Under the pieces are notes generated by a model that had not been told where the DNA came from, searched no databases, and worked only from the letters and a program-made list of their open reading frames with translations. A stretch of 33,966 nucleotides of DNA from Collimonas fungivorans (lineage in GTDB: Bacteria > Pseudomonadota > Gammaproteobacteria > Burkholderiales > Burkholderiaceae_D): contig NZ_JAQGLV010000143.1 of NCBI RefSeq assembly GCF_028292705.1, positions 1 through 33,966 on the forward strand. The letters run 5' to 3'. This document shows positions 30,638 to 33,966 of the stretch, one piece after another. Within the stretch, counting starts at the first letter, position 1. Each line of letters starts with the position of its first letter. The position numbers and the translations under genes are program-made.

Positions 30638-31477
30638 TTATCTTTTCATTACGCCTGGCTTGCGGAATTCCACGTGGCCCAGGTCCATCATTTTCCAGCG
30701 GCCGCCCCAGGTCAGTCCGACCGATTCCGCCACTTCGCCGTACAGCTGGTAACCGCGCATGGCCCACGGATCTTTCTCCGTAATCACCAGCTTGCCGCTG
30801 CGCATGAACGCAGAATCGGCTGCCAGGCCGTACTGGTGGTAGCTCTGGAACGCCTTGGCGTTGGTCACGCTGCCGCCCATTTGCGCCAGCGCATTCTGCC
30901 GTTCCGGACTACGATAACCTTCAATAATGACCATGTCGTAACCGTACTTCTCTTTCATGATCTTGAAAGTCATCAGCAAGCGCTGAGTGAAATCGGCATC
31001 CAGCGCCTGCCAGTTACGGCTGGCGGTATCCAGCATCGGCCGCACTTGCGCCACTTCCTGCGTAGTAAACACCTCAGGCGGCAACGGCGGCGGCGGTACT
31101 AATTGCTCTCCTTCCAGCAACGCGGCAATCTGCTGGTTCACTACTTGCCCGGAATCATCGTAACTCCCAAGCATGGTTTTACCGCTCAACAGCCAAGCAA
31201 TCAAGGGCGGTATCAGCACAACCGCCATTCCGGCGAGTAGAATCCATTGATGCCGCTTGATGAACTGCCAGCTTGAGAGCCTAGATGCCTGCAGGTTTTG
31301 CGACAGGGATCTGGTGGTCTGGGACCGGCGGTCTCGCCAGTTCTGGACCTGCGCCCCCATCTGCTGCCGCCGCTTGATCAATGCCAAATAAACAATCTCG
31401 CGGGCAGCCGGGAACAGCAGCAGTCCGGCGACACCGCATGCAAGCAAAAAGTAAAGGGCGATGACTAAGACGAACAC
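30638..31477 (-). CDS. tagX: TagX-like M15 peptidoglycan endopeptidase, membrane-anchored
   Basis: 279 residues. Two N-terminal hydrophobic segments (about 1-22 and 78-98) anchor it, and the catalytic domain (about 140-275) faces the periplasm. The M15 zinc-peptidase pattern is complete: 'EGYRSPERQ' at 186-194, S-x-H-x-x-G-x-A-x-D as SYHQYGLAAD (ligands H214 and D221) and the last ligand H268 in 'DLGHVEF', preceded by 'LTWGGRW'. This subfamily cuts the L-Ala-D-Glu or related bonds of peptide stems; in Acinetobacter TagX is a T6SS gene needed to make room for the membrane complex in the wall. The start is a GTG at 31477 with a strong AGAAGG five bases before it. A sigma-70 promoter and an inverted repeat lie directly upstream. 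It is upstream of tssM on the same strand. Confidence 0.9.
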   Translation of the reverse strand: MFVLVIALYFLLACGVAGLLLFPAAREIVYLALIKRRQQMGAQVQNWRDRRSQTTRSLSQNLQASRLSSWQFIKRHQWILLAGMAVVLIPPLIAWLLSGKTMLGSYDDSGQVVNQQIAALLEGEQLVPPPPLPPEVFTTQEVAQVRPMLDTASRNWQALDADFTQRLLMTFKIMKEKYGYDMVIIEGYRSPERQNALAQMGGSVTNAKAFQSYHQYGLAADSAFMRSGKLVITEKDPWAMRGYQLYGEVAESVGLTWGGRWKMMDLGHVEFRKPGVMKR

Positions 31478-31493
31478 AAAAACCTTCTCGTGA

Positions 31494-31530
31494 ATATTAC
31501 CAAAGAAAAATTATAATTTTTTGGTAATAT
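31494..31530. repeat. 11-bp inverted repeat around the tagX -10 box, candidate operator
   Basis: ATATTACCAAA (31494-31504) and TTTGGTAATAT (31520-31530) are perfect inverted copies separated by 15 bases; the spacer holds the palindrome AAATTATAATTT, which contains the tagX -10. The arms therefore sit on both sides of the -10 and one overlaps the predicted transcription start. A dimeric regulator could repress tagX here. The structure is seen directly; the function is inferred. Confidence 0.55.
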
Positions 31531-31538
31531 ATTGCCAG
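31510..31538 (-). promoter_or_regulatory. Sigma-70 type promoter for tagX
   Basis: On the minus strand CTGGCA (31533-31538, 4 of 6 to TTGACA) and TATAAT (31510-31515, 6 of 6) are separated by 17 bases. Transcription would start near 31503, giving a leader of about 26 bases before the GTG of tagX. Confidence 0.6.
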
Positions 31539-31568
31539 TTGACATATTTAGTTGTCAGAGAGTATACC
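31539..31568 (+). promoter_or_regulatory. Sigma-70 type promoter for the divergent membrane-protein gene
   Basis: TTGACA (31539-31544, perfect) and TATACC (31563-31568, 4 of 6) are separated by 18 bases. Its -35 directly abuts the -35 of the tagX promoter on the other strand. The -35 is also part of TGACA-N8-TGTCA (31540-31557), a short inverted repeat. The start would be near 31575, about 65 bases before the preferred TTG start. Confidence 0.6.
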
Positions 31569-31639
31569 TTATCAAACTTGGCGTCACGTCGGTCCGTGCT
31601 CATTAACTGCCCAATAACTGACATTTGGAGATTTGTGTC

Positions 31640-32545
31640 TTGCAACCATCTGAAGAAACTGCGCGCGGCTCCGTAAAACCGAATTTGTTATCGGGCTCGA
31701 CGGCAACAGAAAACGGCAGCGGCAGCATCCTGAACGCGCTGGAAGGCAAGGAATCGCCTTCAAAGGCCGCCGCACAAAAAAAATCCGGCGCCTTGCGCGC
31801 GGCGCTCGTCGTCGTCTTGCTGGCGGCGATCGGCGCGGGTGGATATTTTGCCTGGAACCAACGCAGCGTCCAGCCCGAAACGGCCATTGCAGCCAGCGCG
31901 CCAGCGCCCAAGGAATTGCCGCCAAGCACTCCGGCGCTTGCCGCAAACGATCCCGCGCCTGCCGAAAAAACAGAATCGCAAGCAGCGGTGATCGAAAACG
32001 ATCCAGCCGCCCATGCCGATAAAGCCGACGAAGCATCGGCCGATCCCCGCGCCAAGCTGACGGAAACCCTGGAAGCCGGCGTGCCGGTCACTTCGACTGC
32101 GCTGAAGAAAGCGCTGGAAGAACCGAAGGCATCCAAACCCAAGCCGGCTCCCAAGAGCGTGAATGCACCGCTGGTGAACCGCAATGTGCAGGAGAAAAAA
32201 GCCGTTGCTCCGAAGCCGCCGAAAGCCGGCGCCCAGCCTGCCGACAGCGACGTCAACATCCTGAGCGCACTGGTTTCCCATGGCGACAGCGTGACCGAAC
32301 AACAGCCGCCCAAGGCCAAGGAAACCGCCAAATCGAAACAACAGGCGAAGAAAAAAGGGACAGAACCCGTGCTTGCGCAAAATGCCTCTGACGGACCCGA
32401 TATCGTCGAGCGCAAGGCCGGCGACAGCACTGGCGGCTTGCTGCAACGCTGCAAGCAGCTGGGCATGATCGAAGGCGAGTTGTGCCGCTGGCGCATTTGT
32501 TCCGGACGCTGGGATACCGACGCTGCATGCAAGGTAAACCGCTAG
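31640..32545 (+). CDS. Single-pass membrane protein with Pro/Lys-rich linker and Cys-rich tail, unknown
   Basis: 301 residues from the TTG at 31640, chosen because GGAG lies 9 bases upstream; the track TTG at 31625 would place that site inside the gene. An N-terminal cytoplasmic part of about 50 residues is followed by one membrane helix ('ALRAALVVVLLAAIGAGGYF'), then about 200 residues of Ala/Pro/Lys/Glu-rich, probably extended sequence. The end is a compact segment with four cysteines: 'LLQRCKQLGMIEGELCRWR' followed by 'ICSGRWDTDAAC'. This topology resembles TonB-like or cell-wall-spanning proteins, but no known domain is recognised. It is divergent from tagX, sharing a 147-base promoter region, which hints at a common envelope function. 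The function is unknown. Confidence 0.75.
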   Translation: MQPSEETARGSVKPNLLSGSTATENGSGSILNALEGKESPSKAAAQKKSGALRAALVVVLLAAIGAGGYFAWNQRSVQPETAIAASAPAPKELPPSTPALAANDPAPAEKTESQAAVIENDPAAHADKADEASADPRAKLTETLEAGVPVTSTALKKALEEPKASKPKPAPKSVNAPLVNRNVQEKKAVAPKPPKAGAQPADSDVNILSALVSHGDSVTEQQPPKAKETAKSKQQAKKKGTEPVLAQNASDGPDIVERKAGDSTGGLLQRCKQLGMIEGELCRWRICSGRWDTDAACKVNR

Positions 32546-32588: not shown

Positions 32589-33449
32589 ATGCTGATTACC
32601 TTTGTTTTACTCGCCGTCGCGATCGCCGCGGTCTGGCTGCTTCCCCTCCGACTGACTGACCGCATCGTCCTGCTGCCCTGGATGGCGGTCGCCGCCTGCG
32701 CGCTCCTCAGCGGCCTGGCGGCCGCTGTCCTGAGTCCCCTGGCGGTGCTGGAACTGGCGCTGTTCTGCCTGGCCGCTTACCTGGCCGCCACGGCCCGCCG
32801 CAATCTGCGCTTGCTGTTCGGCGTCGTCGCCGCCATCCTGGCTTTGGCGCTGGCCTTGCATAAGCTGCCGGGATTCAATAATCCGATACTGCTTTTCCAG
32901 CTGCGCCTGTCCGCCGACTCCGCACCCTTCACGCAATATGCAAACTTCGACAAAGGCGCCGCCGGCCTGGTCCTGCTGGCGTTCCTGTGCGCCCGCGCCA
33001 GCTCCGCGGCCGACTGGCGCAAGCTGTTGCGGCAGACCTGGCCCATTGCGCTGATCGCAGCGGTTGCCGTGCTCGGCCTGGCGACCGCCATCGGCTATGT
33101 CAAGCCGGATTTCAAGATCAGCCAGGCTACTGCGCTGTTCTTGTCCACCAACCTGTTCTTTACAGTAGTTGCGGAAGAAGCTTTTTTCCGCGGCTTGCTG
33201 CAAGACCGCCTGGCCTTGTCGTTGGCGCGCTTTCGCTACGGCCCGCTGCTGGCGGTAGTCTGCTCGGCTCTCTTGTTCGGCGCGGCGCATATAGCCGGCG
33301 GCGGCACTTATGTGCTGCTGGCCACGGTCGCCGGCCTGGCTTATGCCTATGCTTATTACGTCACGCAACGCATCGAAGCCGCGATCATCGTCCATTTCGC
33401 GGTCAATGCGGTTCACTTCATCGGCTTTACCTATCCCCACCTCAACTAA
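32589..33449 (+). CDS. CPBP family intramembrane metalloprotease
   Basis: 286 residues, highly hydrophobic with about eight predicted membrane segments. The three CPBP (Abi/Rce1-like) motifs are intact: EEAFFRG (196-202), F230-x-x-x-H234 in FGAAH, and H269-x-x-x-N273 in HFAVN. The two Glu and the two His residues would act in the intramembrane active site. Family members process CAAX proteins in eukaryotes and have varied or unknown substrates in bacteria, including bacteriocin immunity. AGGA lies about 4 bases before the ATG. It starts 43 bases after the unknown membrane-protein gene on the same strand and may be cotranscribed; a direct T6SS link is not evident. Confidence 0.9.
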   Translation: MLITFVLLAVAIAAVWLLPLRLTDRIVLLPWMAVAACALLSGLAAAVLSPLAVLELALFCLAAYLAATARRNLRLLFGVVAAILALALALHKLPGFNNPILLFQLRLSADSAPFTQYANFDKGAAGLVLLAFLCARASSAADWRKLLRQTWPIALIAAVAVLGLATAIGYVKPDFKISQATALFLSTNLFFTVVAEEAFFRGLLQDRLALSLARFRYGPLLAVVCSALLFGAAHIAGGGTYVLLATVAGLAYAYAYYVTQRIEAAIIVHFAVNAVHFIGFTYPHLN

Positions 33450-33487: not shown

Positions 33488-33966
33488 TTACTTGTTCTGA
33501 TCGATCCGTTGCTGGATATGCTGGGCACGGTCGGTCGACGATGGATGCGAGCTGAGCATGGTGGCGCCGGCGCCGCCGTCCAGTTTCGCCAGCTTCTGAA
33601 ATGCCGTCACCAGCCCTTTGCGATCCATGTTCATCTTGGTCAGCTGGTCAAACGAATAGTCGTCGGCAGCGCTTTCCTGCACCTGGGAGAATTGGGCGTT
33701 GATGATTTTTTCGGTCAGCTCGCCCAGTTGCGACGACGACAGGTTGGTTACCACCGCATTGCCCGTTGCGCCCGCGGCAGTACGCGCAGCCGTCACGGCA
33801 TACGCGGTCTGCATGGCTTTTTTGGTGTGGCCTAGTGCAACGTGTCCCATTTCATGCCCGATCACGCCGCGCAGTTCACTGTCGTTCATCATGTCCATCA
33901 AGCCGCTATACACCCGGATGCAGCCGTTCGACATGGCCCAGGCGTTGACGTCTTTGGTCATGTAAA
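33488..33966 (-). CDS. loiP: M48 family metalloprotease (LoiP/YggG-like), C-terminal part cut by window edge
   Basis: The frame stays open through the right edge; the Met at 33961 is probably internal, since M48 proteins of this type have about 100 further N-terminal residues including a signal peptide. Visible sequence: 'KDVNAWAMSNGCIRVYSGLMDMM', then 'ELRGVIGHEMGHVALGH' with the zinc motif HEMGH, 'EKIINAQFSQVQESAADDYSFD' with the third ligand Glu, and 'LSSHPSSTDRAQHIQQRI' at the end. These match E. coli YggG/LoiP closely, an outer-membrane lipoprotein protease with envelope quality-control roles. It is convergent with the CPBP gene. It probably marks the edge of the T6SS locus. Confidence 0.85.
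   Translation of the reverse strand, partial: YMTKDVNAWAMSNGCIRVYSGLMDMMNDSELRGVIGHEMGHVALGHTKKAMQTAYAVTAARTAAGATGNAVVTNLSSSQLGELTEKIINAQFSQVQESAADDYSFDQLTKMNMDRKGLVTAFQKLAKLDGGAGATMLSSHPSSTDRAQHIQQRIDQNK

What the first reader, a model, noticed from the sequence alone, without database searches (positions are those of the whole stretch)
31640..32545. Unknown membrane protein with a four-cysteine tail, divergent from tagX
One membrane helix, a long Pro/Ala/Lys-rich linker and a short C-terminal domain with four Cys and several Trp/Arg residues suggest a wall-spanning protein with a disulfide-held or metal-binding knob. Sharing a compact divergent promoter with the peptidoglycan hydrolase TagX suggests it may place, restrain or protect against that hydrolase. 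I know of no named T6SS component with this architecture.
Basis: inference. Interest (0 to 1): 0.5.

Follow-up and report, generated by a model that had tools for sequence, protein, structure and literature searches.

The report
TagY, a known type VI accessory protein
The unknown membrane protein next to tagX is TagY, an accessory protein of one type of bacterial "harpoon" (type VI secretion system) that was named in 2019 but whose job is still unknown; relatives show that its four cysteines come and go in pairs, as expected for a disulfide-locked knob that the protein can lose.

Summary
Window 31640-32545 (+, TTG start) encodes a 301-residue protein with one membrane helix, a disordered Pro/Ala/Lys-rich linker and a C-terminal four-Cys domain, divergent from tagX across 162 bp. 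It is not a new T6SS component: it is an orthologue of TagY (BCAL0353), named by Spiewak et al. 2019 (PMC6612558) with the same position and architecture. TagX adjoins it in 63/63 testable loci of named genomes and 40/40 Burkholderiaceae loci.

Three points go beyond what I read of the 2019 description. (1) Among 178 non-redundant TagY proteins the periplasmic Cys count is 4 (139), 2 (21) or 0 (16), and odd in only 2; this favours disulfides over a metal or Fe-S site. (2) The tail is dispensable: lost in a Ralstonia-like genus and eroded in another lineage. (3) A short helix, DxDxxLLxAL, before the tail is kept even there, so it is probably the core periplasmic docking element. Function is unproven: the published tagY mutant secreted TssD normally. 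My best guess is a conditional modulator of TagX or of membrane-complex insertion through the cell wall.

The parts
31640..32545 (+). tagY: bitopic inner-membrane protein, 301 aa, TTG start
   Evidence: matches the TagY of PMC6612558
31676..31750 (+). cytoplasmic N-terminal motifs KPNLLS ... SILNALEG (residues 13-37)
   Evidence: conserved in TagY of all lineages; two motifs with an 11-residue gap
31784..31864 (+). membrane helix, residues 49-75
   Evidence: AlphaFold2 helix, pLDDT about 86-89
32243..32278 (+). conserved short periplasmic helix DSDVNILSALVS (residues 202-213)
   Evidence: kept in tail-less TagY; predicted helix 203-215
32426..32542 (+). four-Cys C-terminal helical hairpin (C271, C282, C287, C297; C-x10-C-x4-C-x9-C)
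   Evidence: only invariant columns among 50 tails; AlphaFold2 pLDDT about 90 over the core
30638..31477 (-). tagX: peptidoglycan hydrolase of the M15 family, divergent partner
   Evidence: Pfam PF13539; adjacent in all testable loci
31478..31639 (.). 162-bp divergent intergenic region with inverted repeat TTACCAAA-N15-TTTGGTAA (31497-31527)
   Evidence: repeat conserved in all 9 genomes of the genus that carry the gene; the only such site in the own genome
26420..30337 (-). tssM, upstream of tagF and tagN in the same T6SS cluster
   Evidence: homology to annotated TssM in L043; synteny

Best explanation
The gene is tagY, an accessory gene of the T6SS-1 (i4b-type) cluster. Shown here: it is a near-obligate neighbour of tagX and has cytoplasmic motifs, one membrane helix, a flexible linker, a conserved short helix and usually a four-Cys tail. 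Inferred: TagY sits in the T6SS membrane complex. Its cytoplasmic motifs contact the cytoplasmic side of TssL/TssM or the baseplate, and its DxDxxLLxAL helix contacts TagX or periplasmic TssM. The linker carries a small disulfide-locked helical knob towards the wall or outer membrane. It would act as a conditional modulator that couples TagX cell-wall opening to membrane-complex assembly, not as a core part. Confidence by step: identity 0.97; disulfides 0.8; action on TagX or the membrane complex 0.4.
For: Identity: position, orientation, TMD, two N-terminal motifs and Cys tail match TagY; profile match to Burkholderiaceae TagY over the full length, probability 99.7, E 2.5e-26. Linkage: TagX beside it in 63/63 testable named-genome loci and 40/40 Burkholderiaceae loci; Fisher p 7.5e-29 across 295 genomes, not corrected for phylogeny. 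Most TagX loci where BLAST missed TagY carry one by motif. Disulfides: even Cys counts in 176 of 178. TagX: full-length enzyme inactive in vitro and its authors suggest control by other T6SS parts (PMC5061870); TagX binds TssM in Acinetobacter (PMC10564176).
Against: The tagY::Tp mutant of B. cenocepacia H111 secreted TssD normally (data not shown, PMC6612558), so any control of TagX is dispensable in the laboratory. Acinetobacter TagX works without a TagY. No interaction data exist. TagM is still present where the tail is lost, and TssJ usually, so no tail partner emerged.
Confidence: 0.5

Rival explanations
1. The Cys tail is a metal, Fe-S or redox-sensing site that tunes T6SS activity (the proposal of Spiewak et al.).
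For: Four invariant Cys with near-constant spacing. A redox-switchable disulfide is not excluded.
Against: No CxxC pair; Cys vary as 4, 2 or 0; periplasmic location; no fold or sequence match to a metal site.
Confidence: 0.15
2. TagY is a self-protection factor that restrains TagX until the membrane complex is in place.
For: Near-obligate pairing with tagX and a shared divergent intergenic region.
Against: Acinetobacter has tagX without tagY; the published tagY mutant was viable.
Confidence: 0.2
3. TagY is a wall or outer-membrane anchor: the knob binds peptidoglycan or a lipoprotein such as TagM or TssJ and the linker only measures distance.
For: Architecture of anchor plus long flexible linker plus small end domain; Acinetobacter lacks TssJ, TagM and TagY together.
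Against: Tail-less TagY clusters keep TagM, and mostly TssJ; tail loss is tolerated.
Confidence: 0.2

Closest known systems
TagY (BCAL0353) of Burkholderia T6SS-1, Spiewak et al. 2019, PMC6612558
   Same: Divergent from tagX; cytoplasmic N-terminus with two short motifs; one TMD about 55 residues in; low-complexity linker; four-Cys tail of about 40 residues.
   Different: Burkholderiaceae relatives are only about 26% identical overall; TTG start here; sequences between the Cys differ.
Tail-less TagY-like protein of Ralstonia, PMC6612558 and PMC11481896
   Same: Same position beside tagX; same N-terminal motifs, TMD, linker and DxDxxLLAAL helix in the g213 genomes, which I take to be Ralstonia.
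   Different: Ends soon after the DxDxxLLAAL helix; no Cys tail.
Non-T6SS proteins with look-alike four-Cys tails (L055, L056, L057)
   Same: Bitopic proteins ending in a four-Cys tail with W/G residues.
   Different: No TagX beside them; one carries a double zinc ribbon and a cytochrome c-like stretch; common origin not shown.

Membership tests
TagY | Upstream of tagX and in reverse orientation | tested here: met
[quoted passage not shown]
   helix 49-75 preceded by basic residues QKK and R
TagY | Two short N-terminal motifs separated by 10-13 residues | tested here: met
   PNLL at 14-17 and SILNALEG at 29-36, gap 11; same motifs in Burkholderiaceae TagY
TagY | C-terminal region of about 40 residues with four Cys (in most members) | tested here: met
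   C271, C282, C287, C297; aligned with Burkholderiaceae Cys
TagY | Lies in a T6SS-1 cluster (tagF, tagN, tagM, tagX plus tss genes) | tested here: met
   TagF and TagX by family models, TagN-like OmpA protein; TssM, TssL, TagF, TagN synteny; TagM assigned by position and lipoprotein look only
TagY | Absent from unrelated T6SSs | tested here: met
   One case: G083 of the same genus has a T6SS with a distant TssC and neither TagX nor TagY
TagY | RnfC-like linker (described for Burkholderia only) | tested here: not met
   no Pfam match of note in 17 family members; not a defining feature outside Burkholderia
TagX regulator or inhibitor | Physical or functional effect on TagX | not testable with these tools
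   genetic linkage only
Zinc ribbon or Fe-S domain | Constant Cys ligand set and matching fold | tested here: not met
   Cys number varies in pairs, no CxxC; no PDB match

The most novel reading that the evidence does not exclude
TagY's essential part is the conserved DxDxxLLxAL periplasmic helix, which docks on TagX or TssM and gates cell-wall opening; the disulfide knob is an optional sensor or anchor that some lineages have shed, so TagY would be a missing control element of a T6SS wall hydrolase.
Probability: 0.25. Interest if true: 0.5.

Novelty: already known. Interest (0 to 1): 0.22.

Why it matters
It closes the claim of a new T6SS component: the protein has a name and one mutant report. 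It also makes the open question of what TagY does sharper. Relatives separate a conserved core (N-terminal motifs, TMD, DxDxxLLxAL helix) from a dispensable disulfide tail, which tells an experimenter which residues to change first. How the T6SS opens its own cell wall safely is still poorly understood.

Tried and rejected
Pfam, NCBIfam and PDB sequence searches with TagY: nothing significant. Fold search of the tail against the PDB: best E 5.3, probability 0.09. Full-length AlphaFold2 model: mostly disordered, pTM 0.26. Idea that the tail is lost together with TagM or TssJ: not supported; of 24 genomes with a tail-less TagY, or close kin of these, TagM is in all and TssJ in 20. Idea that the downstream CPBP protease gene belongs to the system: rejected, found beside tagY only in close relatives. 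Four TagY hits without TagX (G004, G078, G131, G168) look like composition matches and were set aside; G225 is unresolved. A scan with the diverse full-length alignment found no usable conserved stretch.

Full report
What is there. Window 31640-32545 (+) is an open frame of 301 codons from a TTG behind TTGGAG. The divergent gene 30638-31477 (-) is TagX, an M15-type peptidase with a Peptidase_M15_4 match at 2.2e-11. It carries SYHQYGLAAD and GHVEF, the usual M15 metal-ligand motifs (read from the sequence; family knowledge). The gap is 162 bp. The genome is a Collimonas, to judge by its closest named relatives in a public genome scan. The window holds a T6SS cluster with tssM, tagF and a tagN-like gene beside tagX.

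Is it a real, conserved gene? Yes. A search of 295 family genomes gave 81 hits, with 79-97% identity in eight sister genomes and about 37-42% in related genera. All the top loci that reach far enough have TagX beside it. A scan of 84,980 species genomes with the tail gave 68 loci; in 63 TagX lies divergently adjacent and the other five are at contig ends. In Burkholderiaceae, 40 of 40 fetched loci have TagX. Across the 295 genomes 75 have both, 50 TagX only and 6 TagY only; four of the six are weak composition matches, one (G216) has its TagX fragment at a contig edge and one (G225) is unresolved. The Fisher p value (7.5e-29) ignores phylogeny. In most of the 60 regions fetched, mainly because BLAST had missed TagY there, a TagY-like frame is found by motif; a few escaped the script but show the N-terminal motif by eye, and four (L174, L175, L176, L178) remain unresolved. 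Within the genus the 9 TagY genomes are exactly the 9 TagX genomes; G083 has only an unrelated T6SS and has neither gene.

What it is. Spiewak et al. 2019 (PMC6612558) described tagY, BCAL0353: upstream of tagX in reverse orientation, a TMD about 55 residues in, two N-terminal motifs 10-13 residues apart, a low-complexity linker and about 40 C-terminal residues with four Cys. Every one of these is met here. Profile-profile comparison with three Burkholderiaceae TagY proteins gives probability 99.7 and E 2.5e-26 over the full length. The Ralstonia atlas (PMC11481896) also mentions a TagY-like protein without the Cys domain.

What the comparison adds. (1) Cys number. Among 138 non-redundant TagY proteins, mostly of the home family, the part after the TMD has 4 Cys in 111, 2 in 21, 0 in 5 and 3 in 1; 40 Burkholderiaceae proteins give 4 in 28, 0 in 11 and 5 in 1. 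So 176 of 178 are even. Many of these share ancestry, so the number of independent losses is small (at least the Ralstonia-like genus, one lineage in the home family, and later losses inside it). In the 2-Cys class the retained pair is usually C-x4-C. Paired loss in the periplasm is what disulfides predict. (2) In 50 diverse tails only the four Cys are invariant, with spacing C-x10/11-C-x4-C-x8/9-C. AlphaFold2 gives a two-helix hairpin with pLDDT near 90 in its core; no PDB structure resembles it. The pairing of the Cys is not settled: C282 and C287 are in or at the end of one helix, so they may not bond to each other in the full tail. (3) A motif DxDxxLLxAL, about 65 residues before the first Cys here and closer in shorter forms, is predicted helical (203-215) and is kept where the tail is gone: the Ralstonia-like proteins end soon after it. 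I did not find it in the parts of the 2019 paper that I read.

How it may work. TagX is required for T6SS function in Acinetobacter, its full-length form was inactive in vitro, and its authors suggest control by other T6SS parts (PMC5061870). TagX binds TssM there (PMC10564176). TagY is the nearly constant partner gene of tagX in the beta-proteobacteria examined. I infer a membrane-complex accessory protein whose cytoplasmic motifs and short periplasmic helix dock on machine parts, with an optional knob reaching outward, which modulates wall opening. This is inference. Against a strong role stand the H111 tagY mutant with normal TssD secretion (data not shown) and Acinetobacter lacking TagY altogether. 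A metal or Fe-S site is less likely given point 1. A tail partner lost together with the tail was looked for: TagM persists in all the tail-less genomes tested and TssJ in most.

Verdict. Observation confirmed, interpretation partly supported, family already named. Interest is modest and lies in the core-versus-tail split and the even Cys rule.

Noticed in passing
31497-31527: Perfect inverted repeat TTACCAAA-N15-TTTGGTAA between tagX and tagY, conserved in all nine genomes of the genus that carry the pair and found once in the own genome; possible operator.
   Followed up: partly
31640: tagY starts with TTG in this window and in nearly all loci of the home family that were read, while Burkholderiaceae relatives start with ATG.
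   Followed up: partly
L055:3009-4079, L057:3278-4417, L056:3328-4656: Proteins away from TagX with a look-alike four-Cys C-terminal tail, one with a double zinc ribbon and a cytochrome c-like stretch; perhaps a wider periplasmic module.
   Followed up: partly
L174, L175, L176, L177, L178: TagX copies with a shorter loop between their two membrane helices; in four of the five no TagY was recognised.
   Followed up: partly
32589-33449: CPBP/Rce1-like intramembrane protease downstream of tagY, present there only in close relatives.
   Followed up: partly
L063, L066: tagX-tagY pairs on contigs of metagenome genomes labelled Gammaproteobacteria.
   Followed up: no
33488-33964: LoiP-like M48 metalloprotease gene cut by the end of the contig.
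   Followed up: no
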